Assembly: GCA_016871715.1 (NCBI GenBank)
Contig: VHCO01000018.1
Span: 1 to 58,398 of the forward strand
Source: Verrucomicrobiota bacterium
GTDB taxonomy: Bacteria; Verrucomicrobiota; Verrucomicrobiia; Limisphaerales; J093
Direction: 5' to 3'
Length of the DNA stretch: 58,398 bases
This document shows, in pieces, positions 1 through 58,398 of this stretch. The position numbers were made by a program, and so were the translations under genes. A model generated the notes under the pieces. The model worked only from the letters and a program-made list of their open reading frames with translations. It was not told where the DNA came from and did not search any database. How positions within the stretch are numbered: the stretch's first letter is position 1; each line of letters opens with the position of its first letter.

Positions 1-684
1 TCCCGCCTCAGCCCCGCTCTGAGACGCTCCCCCACTCCCGCCCGTGTACAAACTCAACAACCCCGAGCGCGCCTTCGCATCCCCAGCCACCGCAGCCGCG
101 TATCCGCAGTGCCGGTAATCCTTCGGATCCTCCACCAAACCCGCCCGCACCGCGTTCAAGTCGATGTACGCCGACACCGTCTCCAGCACTCCCGTCTGAT
201 CCTCGACCAGCACACTCCGAAACCGTTCCGCCCACAGCGTCCCAAACCGCTGATGCCGTATGTTGTACCACTTGCTGAACCGTTGCTTGAACTCCTTCAT
301 GAACGCCGACACATCCCCCATCCGCGCCAGCATCCGTTTCCGGATGTCCGCGTCCACCCGACCATGGTCGTGCAATCCCTTCTCGGCCTCATAGAGCAAC
401 CCGGCCTCTCGGGGCTTGGCCTTCCCGTAGAGGGCCTTCATGCGCTCGACCAGTTCCTCGTCGGTCGGGTTCTGCTCGGCCGGGACGCGGACCAAGACAT
501 GGAAGTGGTTGGACATGATACAGTAGGTGATGACCTCGAGGCCGCAGAAGGTGGCCAGGCGCCGGAGGAGCCGGACCAAGGTTTCTTTGCCGAGGTCATC
601 GAGGAGGCGTTGGGCGCCGACGATGCGGGACACGCAGTGGTACACGGCCGGTCGCCCTTTGACTTTGATGCGGGTCGTTCTCAT
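1..684 (-). CDS. REP-associated Y1/HUH transposase, copy 1 (3' end outside window)
   Basis: This is the N-terminal 228 residues of a single-strand DNA transposase of the IS200-like/RAYT superfamily; the frame stays open to the window edge. The start is ATG at 684, giving MRTTRIKVKGRPAVYHC. The HUH metal motif reads NHFHVLV (His60 and His62), and a candidate nucleophilic Tyr is in KWYNIRHQRFGTLW (about residue 140). The DNA is almost identical to the copies at 33545 and 58160; only a handful of residues differ from copy 2 (for example T3 for L, P12 for S, A125 for E). A TTGACA promoter lies about 75-105 bases upstream. The family nicks and rejoins single-stranded hairpins. Whether this copy is complete cannot be seen. 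Confidence 0.88.
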   Translation of the reverse strand, partial: MRTTRIKVKGRPAVYHCVSRIVGAQRLLDDLGKETLVRLLRRLATFCGLEVITYCIMSNHFHVLVRVPAEQNPTDEELVERMKALYGKAKPREAGLLYEAEKGLHDHGRVDADIRKRMLARMGDVSAFMKEFKQRFSKWYNIRHQRFGTLWAERFRSVLVEDQTGVLETVSAYIDLNAVRAGLVEDPKDYRHCGYAAAVAGDAKARSGLLSLYTGGSGGASQSGAEAG

Positions 685-42036: not shown

Positions 42037-42396
42037 TCATCCGTATCTCCGCAACCCCAGCCCAACCACGACACCGACTCCGACATGCAGCGCGGCAATC
42101 GCCAGAAAGACCAAGCGGAAAGTGCGGTCCCGGGTCTTGTGGCGGAAGAAGACCTGGCCGACAAACGCCCCCGGGGTCGCGGCGCACAACGCCATGAGGT
42201 GCAAGGCGAGCTCGGGCACGCGCCGCAACCGCGCTCGAGCGAGGAACTTGTCGTAGCCGTAAGCGAGCGTTGTCGCCAGGTTCACGCCGCCGGCCAGGCT
42301 CCAGAGCGGCGAGACCCCTGACGCGGCCAGAGCCACCGCTATCGCGATGGCCCCGCCCGCGAAAGCCAACATCACCGTCCAACCGAACCGTGTCAT
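42037..42396 (-). CDS. DUF1294 small membrane protein
   Basis: This 119-residue protein has about four hydrophobic segments and the DUF1294 signature AYGYDKFLARARLRRVPELALHL, then GAFVGQVFFRHKT. Function unknown for the family. It follows the MIT-AAA ATPase gene by 13 bases in the same direction, so it is the likely last gene of the ESCRT-like operon. Because DUF1294 proteins also occur alone, the link may be only positional. Confidence 0.85.
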   Translation of the reverse strand: MTRFGWTVMLAFAGGAIAIAVALAASGVSPLWSLAGGVNLATTLAYGYDKFLARARLRRVPELALHLMALCAATPGAFVGQVFFRHKTRDRTFRLVFLAIAALHVGVGVVVGLGLRRYG

Positions 42397-42409: not shown

Positions 42410-43528
42410 TCATTTGAACCTGGCCTGGGCGAACTTCTTGTACTCTCTCATCATCTCGGGTGTGGCGCTCGAGGGGATGGTCTTGAGGGCCTGCTCGATG
42501 TCGTCTTGGGTGAGGAGGTTGGCGGCACCGCCGATGCTGCGCCTGAAGCCGGTGCGCTTGGCGGATTGGAGGATGGCCACAATGTCCGAACCGGTGTAGC
42601 CATCCAGCCGCGCGGCTAACACCCGAGCGTCGAGCCCTGCCTCGACCGGTGCGCCCCCCAGGTTCCGTTGCACCATGAACTCGCGGGCGGCGAGATCGGG
42701 CAGGTCGACGAAGATCTTCTCGTCGAACCGGCCGGTGCGGAAGACGGCCTCGTCGATGTCCCAAGGCTTGTTGGTGGCGCCCAACAGCAGGAGGACGTTC
42801 GGGGACTCCTCGAACCCGCCGACCTCGGCGAGGAATTGAACGACGATACGGTTATCGACCACCGAGTTCCCGCCGCGCTTGGGCAGTAGCCCGTCCAGGT
42901 CGTCCAGGAACAGAACCGAGAGCGGCCGGGAACGGGCCGTCTGGATGAGCTTGCGCAGGCGCTGTTCGGATTCGCCGTGCCACTTGGACCGGATCTCGGC
43001 GCCGGTTGCGTAGAAGAAGGCCGCCTCGAGCTCGCCTGCGACGGCCTTGCCAAGGGTCGTTTTCCCATTGCCCGGCGGACCGAACAGCAGGATGCCGCCG
43101 CCGGCGCGGATGCCCCATTCTCTGGCCTTGTCCGGGTGCTTGAGCGGCTCGATGACCATCTCGGCCAGCTTCGCCTTGACGGCGTCCATGCCGGCGATGT
43201 CGGTTAGCCGCACGTTGGGTTTCTCGGTAACCAGCCAATCCTCTTCGCCTCGAACGGCATCCCCTCCCGCCTCGCGCACGGCACGCGGGGCGCTTGGCCG
43301 GGCGGATCCCCGGGGCGCCTTAGCCTGGAGTTCCTCGCCCACCTCGATCAACTCGCGGGCTTCCCGCAGGTGGGCCTGGCGCACTTTGCCGTCGCACTTC
43401 TCAGCCAGCTTGAGGGCGAATTCGCCCGCCTTCGCCAGGTGAAATGCCGCCTTGCGCAGGGCGCCCTCGTTCATGGACCGCTCGGCCAGGGTCGCATGCT
43501 CGCGTTTCTTGTCGGCATCGAAACTCAT
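42410..43528 (-). CDS. Vps4-like AAA ATPase with MIT-like N-terminal domain
   Basis: This 372-residue protein starts with a three-helix region at 8-70 (AERSMNEGALRKAAFHLAKA, then HLREARELIEVGEEL), patterned like a MIT domain. The AAA module has Walker A GPPGNGKTT (150-158), a pore loop SKWHGESE (181-188), Walker B FLDDLD (207-212), sensor 1 GATNKPWDIDEA (250-261) and candidate arginine fingers Arg264 and Arg267. KWxGESE and ATNxPWxID are hallmarks of the Vps4/katanin/spastin (meiotic) clade. The C-terminus (QDDIEQALKTIPSSATPEMM) resembles the final Vps4 helix. Walker B has Asp where Glu is usual. The ATG overlaps the stop of the Snf7-like gene (ATGA). Predicted to disassemble ESCRT-III-like filaments. 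Confidence 0.85.
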   Translation of the reverse strand: MSFDADKKREHATLAERSMNEGALRKAAFHLAKAGEFALKLAEKCDGKVRQAHLREARELIEVGEELQAKAPRGSARPSAPRAVREAGGDAVRGEEDWLVTEKPNVRLTDIAGMDAVKAKLAEMVIEPLKHPDKAREWGIRAGGGILLFGPPGNGKTTLGKAVAGELEAAFFYATGAEIRSKWHGESEQRLRKLIQTARSRPLSVLFLDDLDGLLPKRGGNSVVDNRIVVQFLAEVGGFEESPNVLLLLGATNKPWDIDEAVFRTGRFDEKIFVDLPDLAAREFMVQRNLGGAPVEAGLDARVLAARLDGYTGSDIVAILQSAKRTGFRRSIGGAANLLTQDDIEQALKTIPSSATPEMMREYKKFAQARFK

Positions 43529-44184
43529 GGCGCGTTCCCCTCGATAATCTTGCGGGCGCGCGCGCGCAATCCAGCGGTCTCATCCGCCTCCTTGACCGCG
43601 CGTTCGGCGCTCTCGCGGGCGCGGCCGGAGCGGCCTCCGCCCGACTCCTCGGCCACCTCGTCCTCGAGTTCTTTGAGCATCTGGTCCAGGCTCGGCACCT
43701 GATCGGCCAAGGAGCTCTCGACGCCTTCCATTTCCTTCGAGTGGAGCTTGTCCCAGATCTTGTCCGTGTCCACTTGATCGCCCAGCTTGTCCTCGACCTC
43801 GCCGAGGACGTCGGCCACCTTGTCGGGGTCGATGTGGACGACGGTGTTGATGGCGCCGAGAGCGGCGGCGAATTCTTGATCGGTCTTGGACAACTCGAGC
43901 TTGGTCAGAAGCTGCTCGAAGACCCACTTCTTGGTTTCGAGCTTGGACATCATGACCTCGCTGGCGCGCACCGTCTGCAGGCACCGTTGAGCGGCGCCTT
44001 TCTGGCCGTCGCGCAGGTAATCGCGCGCCTCTTTCCACTTGGCGTCGCGGTCTTTTTTGAGCCGGCCGACGCGGTCCTTGACGGCGTCCACCGCGTTCTC
44101 CGCCTCCCGAAACGCCTTGCGGCGACGCCGTTTGGCTTCGAGCTCGCGGTCTTTCTTGGATTTCAACAGGTCTCCGAGTGCCAT
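43525..44184 (-). CDS. ESCRT-III (Snf7)-like coiled-coil protein
   Basis: This 219-residue, highly charged helical protein follows the ESCRT-III layout. A basic N-terminal helix (KKDRELEAKRRRRKAFREAE) leads to a second long helix containing ARDYLRDGQKGAAQRCLQTV and KLETKKWVFEQLLTKLELSK. Next comes IDPDKVADVLGEVEDKLGDQ, matching the Snf7 stretch around DIDKVDDTMDEI, then an acidic helix SLDQMLKELEDEVAEE in the place of a MIT-interacting motif. It is translationally coupled to the MIT-bearing AAA ATPase. I infer a membrane-binding filament protein. No membrane segment or signal, so cytoplasmic face. Alternative: an unrelated coiled coil. Confidence 0.75.
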   Translation of the reverse strand: MALGDLLKSKKDRELEAKRRRRKAFREAENAVDAVKDRVGRLKKDRDAKWKEARDYLRDGQKGAAQRCLQTVRASEVMMSKLETKKWVFEQLLTKLELSKTDQEFAAALGAINTVVHIDPDKVADVLGEVEDKLGDQVDTDKIWDKLHSKEMEGVESSLADQVPSLDQMLKELEDEVAEESGGGRSGRARESAERAVKEADETAGLRARARKIIEGNAP

Positions 44185-44251
44185 AGGTTCTCCTGGGTTT
44201 GGAGGTTGATTGACTGGGGTGATTGGGTGTGCCCTGATCGGTGAAGCGGCC

Positions 44252-44854
44252 TCAGGCCTGGTCCGCTTCGAGCTGCTTGAGGAAGGCCGCTGTGTTGTCC
44301 GAGAAACCTTCCGCCTTCTCCGCCCCGGCCGTTGCCGGAGCGGGCGCCGCGGCCAACTCCGCCTCTGCCTGCGCGGTCCGCACGCGCAGCGCCTTGAGGC
44401 TCTCCATCGCCTGGTCGGCGCGCTCAGCGGCGTCGATGGCTTCTTCCAGTTGGACCGCCACGGCGTCGATCTGCTCCTCCTGCACGCTGCCGGCTAGGAG
44501 GGCCGCGAGCTCCCGCATTTTGCTCAGCAGCGCATGGGTAGCGTCCATGTTGTTGAGCTGGATCTCGTGCTCGCGCAGCAGGGGTTGGAGCCGCCCGACC
44601 ATGCGCTCGATCTCCCGGCCGAGCATGGTCTTGGCGATGCCCTTCTTGCCGTCGTGCTCGCGCTTGCGATGCAGGATGCGCGTCTCGGCCCGCGTGGCTT
44701 CGTCCCGCAGCGCGCTCAGCCGATCCTCGGCCTCGGTGAGCCGCTGATTCGCCTCGTCCGTTGCCTTCTGCATCCGCTGCAGGTCCGACGGCTCGAGGCC
44801 GATCTTGCTCCGGAGTTTACCGGCCACTTCTCCCAGCACTTCTTTGATGTTCAT
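44252..44854 (-). CDS. Coiled-coil protein, possible second ESCRT-III/PspA-like subunit
   Basis: This 200-residue protein is almost entirely helical. It begins MNIKEVLGEVAGKLRSKIGL, a possible amphipathic membrane-binding helix. Heptad-rich hairpin helices follow: RLTEAEDRLSALRDEATRAE, then a basic turn LHRKREHDGKKG, then EIERMVGRLQPLLREHEIQL. A shorter acidic helix AVAVQLEEAIDAAERADQAM and an Ala/Pro linker with a C-terminal helix (FLKQLEADQ) complete it. The outline resembles PspA/Vipp1/ESCRT-III folds, but no signature proves it. 67 bases before the Snf7-like gene; likely partner or regulator. Confidence 0.65.
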   Translation of the reverse strand: MNIKEVLGEVAGKLRSKIGLEPSDLQRMQKATDEANQRLTEAEDRLSALRDEATRAETRILHRKREHDGKKGIAKTMLGREIERMVGRLQPLLREHEIQLNNMDATHALLSKMRELAALLAGSVQEEQIDAVAVQLEEAIDAAERADQAMESLKALRVRTAQAEAELAAAPAPATAGAEKAEGFSDNTAAFLKQLEADQA

Positions 44855-44886
44855 ACTTGGTATAGGATTTCGCGAGTTCCGCACGT

Positions 44887-45732
44887 TCAGATTTCCAACT
44901 TGAGCGCGTAGCTCATCACGGCAACGTTGTAGAGGAAGGCCAGCCCCACCAGCCCAAGAAACGCCAGCGCGATGAACCAGCTCCCCAAGCCGCCTCCCAA
45001 CAGGAGAAAAGCGAGCACGCCGTCCACCACCGTGTAGATAGCCAGAGCCCACGCGTTGGCACGATTGGACTCGCGGCGGACGGTGGCGCGGATGAAGCCG
45101 ATCGTGAACACGGGCAAGAGCAGTACCGCCAACGCCCAACCGAGAAACCGCTGCGCCGGGCCGAACCCTTCGCCGCCAGCCACCGCCCCCGGGACTGACA
45201 GCAGGCCCGGTTCGAGTTGCTTCACGTACCTCTGGTCGAGCAGAAGATCCCCGCTGCGCACGTCGGCCAAAGAGAGCTCGAGCTCCAGCCGGGCGCCTTC
45301 GGGATAGGACTCGAACACATCCACCTGCCCGAAGATGACCCCAGCGACCCCGCGGCCCCGCGCGCGCGTCAGCGCCAACCCGATGCTCCCCACGGGCGTA
45401 ACCCTCAGGCGGAGCGACCTCTGGATCTTCTCCTCGAGGCTGGCATCCCGCAGGTCCAGCACCCCCGACTCGAGAATCAACGCCCGCAACCGGTCGGTGA
45501 GGTAGTCCGTGGGATCGTTCGCCAGGTGCAGCAGGACAGCCGAATGCAGCGGGCCGCGCGCCTTCCGCAGGTCCTCGACGATCTGCGGCAGAAGTTGGTC
45601 GGCAACTTCGCGGCGACGTTGACTCACCTGGGGCTTGGCCGGCCCGAAATGGGTCCAGGCTTGATGGGCCATGTAGGCCATCAACGCCACGGTGCCCACC
45701 AAGGTCAGCAGACCCCAGAAGAGCTTGGACAT
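44887..45732 (-). CDS. Multi-pass membrane protein leading the ESCRT-like operon
   Basis: This 281-residue protein has one N-terminal membrane helix (about 5-22), a soluble domain (about 28-190) and three C-terminal helices (about 195-215, 228-247, 251-275). The soluble domain includes GRGVAGVIFGQVDVFESYPE and LSLADVRSGDLLLDQRYVKQ, a pattern like TolB-N/LpoB-type periplasmic domains (a beta sheet with a dxxtGxxl strand). An anchor or envelope-stress sensor for the downstream coiled-coil proteins is a reasonable inference. Start uncertain: ATG 45732 or 45741, or GTG 45759. It lies 32 bases before the next gene. Confidence 0.7.
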   Translation of the reverse strand: MSKLFWGLLTLVGTVALMAYMAHQAWTHFGPAKPQVSQRRREVADQLLPQIVEDLRKARGPLHSAVLLHLANDPTDYLTDRLRALILESGVLDLRDASLEEKIQRSLRLRVTPVGSIGLALTRARGRGVAGVIFGQVDVFESYPEGARLELELSLADVRSGDLLLDQRYVKQLEPGLLSVPGAVAGGEGFGPAQRFLGWALAVLLLPVFTIGFIRATVRRESNRANAWALAIYTVVDGVLAFLLLGGGLGSWFIALAFLGLVGLAFLYNVAVMSYALKLEI

Positions 45733-46055
45733 GCGGCACATATTCAAGAGACTTTTCACCCAGTCAATCGTTTTGCGGCCCGCGCCGGCGTGAGCCGAAC
45801 CGCCGACTCCGCCCGCACCCGCTTTCCCTCGATTACCCCCAGACGCAGCTTTTCATTCATGACCCTTGCTCCTTGTTGCGTTTCCCCCCCCGAGGCAGGC
45901 CCACCGGCACAAGGCGGCAGGCGCGTGAATGCGAACGAGGTTCTTGCCGTAGACAACCTCGGCCGGCGGCGGCTGACTTCTCCCGCTGTGGCGCCCGTGT
46001 GGGTGCGGCGGGGCGGCGCTGGTCGTCCGGCTGAAACAGAGCGGACCTCTCGATC

Positions 46056-58159: not shown

Positions 58160-58398
58160 ATGAGACTGACCCGCATCAAAGTCAAAGGGCGATCCGCCGT
58201 GTACCACTGCGTGTCCCGCATCGTCGGCGCCCAACGCCTCCTCGATGACCTCGGCAAAGAAACCTTGGTCAGGCTCCTCCGGCGCCTGGCCACCTTCTGC
58301 GGCCTCGAAGTCATCACCTACTGCATCATGTCCAATCACTTCCATGTCCTGGTCCGCGTCCCGGCCGAGCAGAACCCGACCGACGAGGAACTGGTCGA
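58160..58398 (+). CDS. REP-associated Y1/HUH transposase, copy 3 (5' part, cut by window edge)
   Basis: The first 79 residues are identical in sequence to copy 2, including MRLTRIKVKGRSAVYHC and the HUH motif NHFHVLV. The gene runs off the window. It is on the opposite strand to copies 1 and 2. Such high identity among three copies in 58 kb points to recent spread or gene conversion. Confidence 0.88.
   Translation, partial: MRLTRIKVKGRSAVYHCVSRIVGAQRLLDDLGKETLVRLLRRLATFCGLEVITYCIMSNHFHVLVRVPAEQNPTDEELV

What the first reader, a model, noticed from the sequence alone, without database searches (positions are those of the whole stretch)
42410..45741. Candidate bacterial ESCRT-III/Vps4-like membrane-remodelling operon
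Four consecutive minus-strand genes encode a multi-pass membrane protein, a coiled-coil protein, a 219-residue protein with Snf7-like layout and an AAA ATPase with a MIT-like N-terminus. Seen directly: the ATPase has SKWHGESE and GATNKPWDID, motif types of the Vps4/katanin/spastin clade. The coupled protein has basic N-terminal helices, IDPDKVADVLGEVEDKL and an acidic SLDQMLKELEDEV helix, in the order found in ESCRT-III. Established: bacterial PspA and Vipp1 belong to the ESCRT-III superfamily. Inference: this is a fuller system with its own disassembly ATPase. I cannot say from memory that such a pair has been characterised in bacteria.
Basis: partly seen in the sequence, partly recalled or inferred. 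Interest (0 to 1): 0.95.

Follow-up and report, generated by a model that had tools for sequence, protein, structure and literature searches.

The report
Bacterial ESCRT-III and Vps4-like operon
A bacterial gene cluster carries a relative of ESCRT-III, the protein that bends and cuts membranes in eukaryotes and archaea, and its gene overlaps that of an ATPase predicted to pull it apart; published accounts place this pairing outside bacteria, so bacteria likely have their own version of the machine.

Summary
On the minus strand, 45732-42410, lie a membrane protein, a coiled-coil protein, a Snf7-domain protein (PF03357 over its cut-off) and an AAA ATPase overlapping it by 4 bases; a DUF1294 gene follows 13 bases later. 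The ATPase has a confidently predicted N-terminal three-helix bundle with some MIT-like profile similarity, though Pfam's MIT model misses it. In a small AAA tree it branches beside Vps4/katanin/spastin (91/92, not decisive). In 387 genomes of the phylum, 16 carry this MIT-AAA and all 16 have a Snf7 gene in the same locus. [quoted passage not shown] one 2024 survey mentions bacterial Vps4-like ATPases and Snf7 loci with AAA ATPases. I read it as an ESCRT-III/Vps4-type operon in Bacteria; polymerisation, membrane binding and remodelling are inferred. Patchy distribution and, in relatives, neighbouring caspase-like and papain-like proteases suggest an accessory envelope-stress or cell-death role rather than division.

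The parts
44887..45732 (-). membrane protein, 281 aa: N-terminal TM, soluble domain of about 170 residues (weak LpoB/CsgG-like matches), about three C-terminal TMs; proposed membrane anchor or sensor
   Evidence: hydropathy; found by tblastn in 11 of 21 other loci, two of them weakly; alignment A5; model hits; at E<=1 LpoB matches 2 of 11 (best 0.05) and CsgG 1 of 11 (0.087)
44252..44854 (-). coiled-coil protein, 200 aa, fast evolving; position like archaeal CdvA (order recalled)
   Evidence: no Pfam family over its cut-off; one homologue besides itself (59%) in the large protein search; syntenic copies in L044 and L046; no detectable homology to Snf7
43525..44184 (-). Snf7/ESCRT-III-like protein, 219 aa
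   Evidence: PF03357 29.7 bits, cut-off 27.3; PDB sequence matches are Snf7 (4 of 4 at E<=1; 4 of 5); model matches CdvB, Snf7; basic first part, acidic middle part
43546..43569 (-). C-terminal MIM1-like motif LRARARKI (residues 206-213 of the Snf7-like protein), predicted docking site for the ATPase N-terminus
   Evidence: relaxed motif, chosen after seeing the tails, in 26 of 26 A1 rows (1.0 expected) and 12 of 27 A4 rows (1.2 expected); strict form 0 of 26 and 2 of 27; co-divergence with the MIT-like bundle
42410..43528 (-). MIT-like + AAA ATPase, 372 aa (Vps4-like)
   Evidence: PF00004 119 bits; NCBIfam CdvC collinear 9-368 to 12-366 of 370, 182.8 bits, under its cut-off of 650; trees
43310..43528 (-). 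N-terminal three-helix bundle, residues 1-73, MIT-like
   Evidence: helices 3-20, 24-43, 47-70; PDB best 2mpk, E 0.0063; profile comparison 22.4, 0 of 200 column shuffles as high
42037..42396 (-). DUF1294 small membrane protein, probable fifth gene of the cluster
   Evidence: PF06961 59.7 bits; 13-base gap; also next to the membrane-protein gene in 2 of 21 loci, L027 and L054

Best explanation
The window holds an operon-like cluster whose products are predicted to form an ESCRT-III-type filament on the inner membrane and the Vps4-like AAA ATPase that would take it apart. Shown: a Snf7-domain gene overlaps, by 4 bases, the gene of an AAA ATPase whose N-terminus is predicted as a three-helix bundle, and the pair recurs across bacterial families, often with a similar membrane protein and a coiled-coil protein. 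Inferred mechanism: the membrane protein senses or marks a site in the envelope; the Snf7-like protein, with its basic hairpin, polymerises on the inner leaflet, perhaps on the coiled-coil protein as CdvB does on CdvA (recalled); its C-terminal MIM1-like tail is bound by the MIT-like bundle of the ATPase; the ATPase ring threads subunits out, so that the polymer reshapes, reseals or severs membrane and is recycled. The likely occasion is envelope damage or a cell-death response, not routine division.
For: Snf7 over Pfam's cut-off; 24 of 27 copies from 22 loci match PF03357 at E<=0.01. Among 14 control genomes only Sulfolobus rings for PF03357, and under the cut-off. Coupling: the 22 loci were found through Snf7; an ATPase of the A2 type (A2 was built from an ATPase-only search; hits over 200 bits counted) is present in 21, always on the same strand, within 31 bases of a Snf7 gene in 17 of the 21; in the 22nd (L053) the contig ends. 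In 387 genomes 14 have Snf7 by A1 and 16 the bundle by A3; a broader Snf7 model finds the gene beside the ATPase in the other two as well (L074, and L075 whose ATPase is very divergent). Tree: family plus its second AAA domains one side of a branch 97/97; with Vps4/katanin/spastin 91/92. MIT-like. Tail; partial r(MIT, tail) 0.46, 0 of 2000 permutations. In L046 the AAA domain and Snf7 core are only 41% and 18% identical to the window's, but bundle and tail are 55% and 54%. Own genome: one Snf7, no PspA. FtsZ matches in 16 of 20 carriers tested and patchiness, 4 of 14 genomes of the family, speak against a division role.
Confidence: 0.72

Rival explanations
1. It is a PspA/Vipp1-like membrane-patching system whose ATPase is a CDC48-type remodeller that merely travels with it; filaments repair membrane passively.
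For: [quoted passage not shown] PMC11237479 notes PspA with other AAA ATPases; in the listed best 60 PDB matches CDC48/p97 leads (two-domain sums), and TIGR01243 201.5 bits exceeds CdvC 182.8.
Against: PF04012 (PspA) is not matched by the protein; family with CDC48 as one clade rejected at p-AU 0.0385; the CdvC match runs the full length while CDC48 starts at residue 100; bundle and tail co-diverge.
Confidence: 0.14
2. It is primarily a defence or programmed-cell-death module: the ESCRT-like parts control membrane rupture or resealing downstream of caspase-like and papain-like proteases. (This overlaps the best explanation, which leaves the occasion open.)
For: Caspase domain genes in L027 and L035, papain-family protease in L027, DUF4384 in L027 and L036 by Pfam; by reading, similar proteases in L009, L036, L037, L038; a diversity-generating retroelement directly before the pair in L009; patchy distribution.
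Against: No such gene was seen beside the window's cluster; padloc hits only the ATPase, through IetA, TRIP13 and mads_8 models; Pfam gives Band_7 in L029 and a trypsin-like protease in L032 instead.
Confidence: 0.3
3. It is a cell-division or vesicle-budding machine like archaeal CdvABC, with coiled-coil, ESCRT-III and Vps4 genes in the same order (order recalled).
For: Gene order coiled coil, Snf7, MIT-AAA in window, L044, L046, L027; CdvA, B and C are co-located (PMC7615534, passages).
Against: FtsZ matches in 16 of 20 carriers tested; most relatives lack the pair: 371 of 387 genomes by both models and 10 of 14 in its family. The coiled-coil protein has no Pfam match to CdvA.
Confidence: 0.1
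4. The similarity is superficial: charged helical proteins beside a generic AAA ATPase acting on another substrate, such as the coiled-coil protein.
For: Weak structure scores with BAR ties; Pfam MIT absent.
Against: Pfam Snf7 over cut-off and in 24 of 27 copies; PDB sequence matches are Snf7 in 4 of 4 and 4 of 5; coupling in 16 of 16 genomes.
Confidence: 0.08

Closest known systems
Archaeal Cdv system (CdvA, CdvB, CdvC)
   Same: coiled-coil, ESCRT-III and MIT-AAA genes in the same order (order recalled); ATPase of similar length, collinear with the CdvC model; fold matches to CdvB and archaeal Vps4
   Different: bacterial; has a membrane protein with about four TMs and DUF1294; coiled-coil protein not detectably CdvA; 16 of 20 carriers tested have FtsZ matches
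Eukaryotic/Asgard ESCRT-III and Vps4
   Same: Snf7 domain, basic-acidic polarity, C-terminal MIM1-like tail, N-terminal three-helix bundle on an AAA ATPase that branches beside Vps4/katanin/spastin
   Different: no ESCRT-I/II partner found by Pfam among the neighbours scanned; Pfam MIT and Vps4_C not met for the window protein; TGRFD arginine-finger loop, more like CDC48; three relatives have two AAA domains (L036, L037, L038)
Bacterial PspA/Vipp1 (PSP response)
   Same: same superfamily; membrane-stress role is a likely shared function
   Different: window protein matches Snf7, not PspA_IM30; it has its own ATPase
Bacterial Vps4-like ATPases and Snf7-AAA loci mentioned in PMC11237479
   Same: that paper (passages; section 18) reports VPS4-like ATPases moved to bacteria (ACB74714.1) and Snf7 homologues with a TM segment next to AAA ATPases (OGG56892.1)
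   Different: in its Vps4-like cases snf7 is said to be displaced by a TPR/6TM protein, and the other loci are described as operons with transporter genes; a soluble Snf7 + MIT-AAA + coiled-coil + membrane-protein set is not described in what I saw. Its tables S2-S3 and web app were not seen.

Membership tests
ESCRT-III (Snf7 family) | Snf7 domain PF03357 over curated cut-off | tested here: met
   29.7 bits against 27.3; 24 of 27 copies at E<=0.01
ESCRT-III (Snf7 family) | basic N-terminal half, acidic C-terminal half (recalled hallmark) | tested here: met
   +11 for residues 1-98, -16 for 99-182; first part positive and middle part negative in 27 of 27
ESCRT-III (Snf7 family) | alpha1-alpha2 hairpin followed by alpha3 to alpha5 | tested here: inconclusive
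ESCRT-III (Snf7 family) | C-terminal MIT-interacting motif | tested here: inconclusive
   relaxed MIM1-like pattern 26 of 26 and 12 of 27, strict 0 of 26 and 2 of 27; binding not tested
ESCRT-III (Snf7 family) | polymerises on and remodels membrane | not testable with these tools
   needs purified protein
Vps4 | N-terminal MIT domain by curated model PF04212 | tested here: not met
   0 of 21 bundles at E<=10
Vps4 | N-terminal three-helix MIT-like bundle | tested here: inconclusive
   model pLDDT 90-98; 2mpk E 0.0063; profile score 22.4 against shuffled maximum 19.0; four of six single MITs score under a TPR consensus
Vps4 | AAA domain in the Vps4/katanin/spastin clade | tested here: inconclusive
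   sister with 91/92; not seen when a long extra row was kept
Vps4 | Vps4_C domain PF09336 | tested here: not met
   absent for window protein at E<=1; 14 of 33 relatives at E<=1, best 0.001
Vps4 | gene neighbourhood with ESCRT-III | tested here: met
   16 of 16 genomes; 17 of 21 loci within 31 bases
Cdv system | CdvA homologue | tested here: inconclusive
   no Pfam match; family diverges fast
PspA/Vipp1 | PspA_IM30 domain PF04012 | tested here: not met
   not among the matches at E<=1; none in own genome

The most novel reading that the evidence does not exclude
Bacteria possess a complete ESCRT-III/Vps4 machine: a bacterial branch of the MIT-AAA ATPases, sister to Vps4, katanin and spastin, that docks on the C-terminal tail of a true Snf7 filament protein and drives ATP-dependent membrane scission or resealing as part of an envelope-damage and cell-death module with its own membrane anchor.
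Probability: 0.54. Interest if true: 0.93.

Novelty: new variant of a known kind. Interest (0 to 1): 0.84.

Why it matters
[quoted passage not shown] A bacterial pair, conserved as neighbouring genes and with co-diverging docking parts, would change that picture, give a small system in which ESCRT-III disassembly could be studied in bacterial cells, and bear on whether the ATPase partner is as old as ESCRT-III itself or was acquired.

Tried and rejected
Homology of the coiled-coil protein to Snf7: none by profile comparison. Mobile carriage: the Snf7-like protein has no match in plasmids or phages, and neither it nor the ATPase has a relative in viral contigs by the word patterns used. Exclusion with PspA: 0 of 20 carriers over the PspA cut-off, 2 weak matches, but only 38 of 387 genomes of the phylum are over it, so this says little. 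Replacement of FtsZ: matches in 16 of 20 carriers, none over that model's cut-off. Searches were given 20 of the 24 carriers then known (G805, G812, G813, G854 left out). Acidic helix as MIM: partial r 0.12 against 0.46 for the tail. Amphipathic N-terminal helices: mostly not above shuffles. IetA/IteA anti-phage ATPase similarity: 104 bits against a cut-off of 510, generic AAA. Promoters and terminators: no sigma-70-like site (0.3 expected), 5 terminator-like sites (3.3 expected, sd 1.8). The side of the membrane protein's soluble domain was not determined. Families missing from the two VIA lists, such as MIT entries, were barely tested there.

Rows dropped: the second AAA tree left out own_L002 (long branch) and L056 (partial); both trees left out L005, L007, L053, L055 and AAA hits under 100 bits, and other AAA proteins of the own genome. 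The neighbourhood counts left out G812 and G813 (same genus code as G814, which is in as L055). The co-divergence test used 18 loci rows, dropping L033 and L034 (no tail), and left out L053, L055 and L056; one Snf7 copy was used per ATPase. One search listed 120 of 294 proteins and 26 were aligned (A1); one search listed 120 of 1692 and 33 were aligned (A2).
Full report
What is there. On the minus strand of the window, reading from 45732 down, lie a membrane protein (44887-45732), a coiled-coil protein (44252-44854), a 219-residue protein (43525-44184) and a 372-residue AAA ATPase (42410-43528), with gaps of 32, 67 and -4 bases, then DUF1294 (42037-42396) after 13 bases. The membrane protein has one N-terminal and about three C-terminal hydrophobic segments around a soluble domain, and most of the ten relatives aligned with it show the same pattern. 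GC content does not stand out from the flanks.

AAA tree. With 36 rows including one long-branched AAA of the same genome, the known families fell together and the bacterial family outside them. Without that row and a partial one, the bacterial family and its second AAA domains are one side of a branch (97/97), they join Vps4, katanin and spastin against CDC48 and FtsH with 91/92, and a clade with CDC48 is rejected at p-AU 0.0385. The sampling is small and the test was chosen after the first tree.

Coupling across genomes. The Snf7-like model finds 14 of 387 genomes of the phylum, in eight family codes, 4 of 14 of the window's own family, one of them weakly, 13 of 197 in another class of the phylum and 1 of 392 in the phylum of the Phycisphaeraceae genome, that one being the centre itself. 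The MIT-like bundle model finds 16 of 387, among them all 14; the model was built from loci in those genomes, so the overlap is partly by construction, but the two further genomes also have a Snf7 gene next to the ATPase once a broader model is used (L074, L075). The ATPase of L075 is very divergent (27.8 bits with A2, 24.5 with A3). Of 22 loci found through Snf7, 21 show the ATPase (A2 hits over 200 bits counted), always on the same strand, downstream of Snf7 in 20, and within 31 bases in 17; in L053 the contig ends. A2 was built from a search with the ATPase alone. The membrane protein is found by tblastn in 11 of 21 loci searched, two of them weakly and one of these 8 kb away, at up to 56% identity. 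In L044 and L046, from the same family, the order membrane protein, coiled coil, Snf7, ATPase is the same as in the window.

A docking motif. The Snf7-like proteins end, after a variable linker, in a conserved basic motif. A relaxed MIM1-like pattern, chosen after seeing the tails, occurs in 26 of 26 rows of A1 (1.0 expected from shuffled tails; these rows are close relatives) and 12 of 27 of A4 (1.2 expected); the strict form occurs in 0 of 26 and 2 of 27. Pairwise divergence of this tail follows that of the MIT-like bundle beyond what the AAA domain and the Snf7 core explain (partial r 0.46; 0 of 2000 permutations, 18 rows). L046 is the clearest case: AAA domain and Snf7 core are 41% and 18% identical to the window's, bundle and tail 55% and 54%. 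A scan along the protein also shows 0.56 for residues 38-63, unexplained, and the tail value falls to 0.38 (18 of 2000) when the window, L044 and L046 are left out. L033 and L034, which lack the tail, have the two bundles least like the window's of the 19 compared (24% and 19%).

What else travels with it. By Pfam, caspase domains occur in L027 and L035, a papain-family protease in L027, DUF4384 in L027 and L036, Band_7 in L029 and a trypsin-like protease in L032. Twenty neighbour proteins were scanned in those two calls, not all neighbours. By reading only, similar proteases are in L009, L036, L037 and L038. In L009 a diversity-generating retroelement stands directly before the pair: two 110-base repeats with 17 differences, 16 of them at template adenines, with a reverse transcriptase-like ORF by reading. 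P0058 shows the same repeat-coded peptide in frame before a Snf7 protein. None of these was seen beside the window's cluster.

How it most likely works. Shown: the genes, their coupling and their family similarities. Inferred: the membrane protein anchors or triggers the system; the Snf7-like protein polymerises on the inner leaflet; the ATPase binds its tail with the MIT-like bundle and extracts subunits; membrane is reshaped or resealed. FtsZ matches in 16 of 20 carriers tested and the patchy distribution speak against a core division role; neighbouring proteases in some relatives suggest stress or cell death.

What is known. [quoted passage not shown] PMC7615534 (passages) says that bacteria lack a clear Vps4 homologue. 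PMC8281802 (passages) and PMC7618577 (passages) describe no bacterial Vps4 partner where I looked. PMC11237479 (passages; section 18) reports Vps4-like ATPases in bacteria with snf7 displaced, and Snf7 homologues with a TM segment near AAA ATPases. My searches (listings) showed no title or abstract describing the set seen here; no preprints were held and no supplementary tables were read. I file it as an ESCRT-III/Vps4-like system in bacteria, a new variant of a known kind, with the ATPase as a sister lineage rather than a certified Vps4.

Noticed in passing
L009:1-110 and 1654-1763: Diversity-generating retroelement: 110-base repeat pair, 16 of 17 differences at template A, reverse transcriptase-like ORF between by reading, directly before Snf7, MIT-AAA and a caspase-like gene; P0058 shows the same repeat peptide before Snf7.
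   Followed up: partly
L036:6372-8762, L037:941-3166, L038:6462-9482: Relatives of the ATPase with the MIT-like bundle followed by two AAA domains, like a Vps4 and a CDC48 in one chain.
   Followed up: partly
L027:10755-15793, L035:13161-14618: Papain-family and caspase-family protease genes next to the ESCRT-like cluster; anti-sigma-like zinc-finger proteins by reading in L036-L039.
   Followed up: partly
L036:5680-15089: Four Snf7-like genes and two MIT-AAA genes within 10 kb, suggesting co-polymers.
   Followed up: no
43996-44073 (residues 38-63 of the Snf7-like protein): This hairpin segment co-diverges with the ATPase bundle more than the tail does (partial r 0.56); no explanation.
   Followed up: no
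1-684 (-) and 58160-58396 (+): Both ends of the contig carry nearly the same transposase-like ORF (MR.TRIKVKGR.AVYHCVSRIVG...), so the assembly probably broke at a repeated element.
   Followed up: no
42410-43528 and relatives: Walker B reads FLDD in the window and several relatives and FLDE in others; effect on hydrolysis unknown.
   Followed up: no
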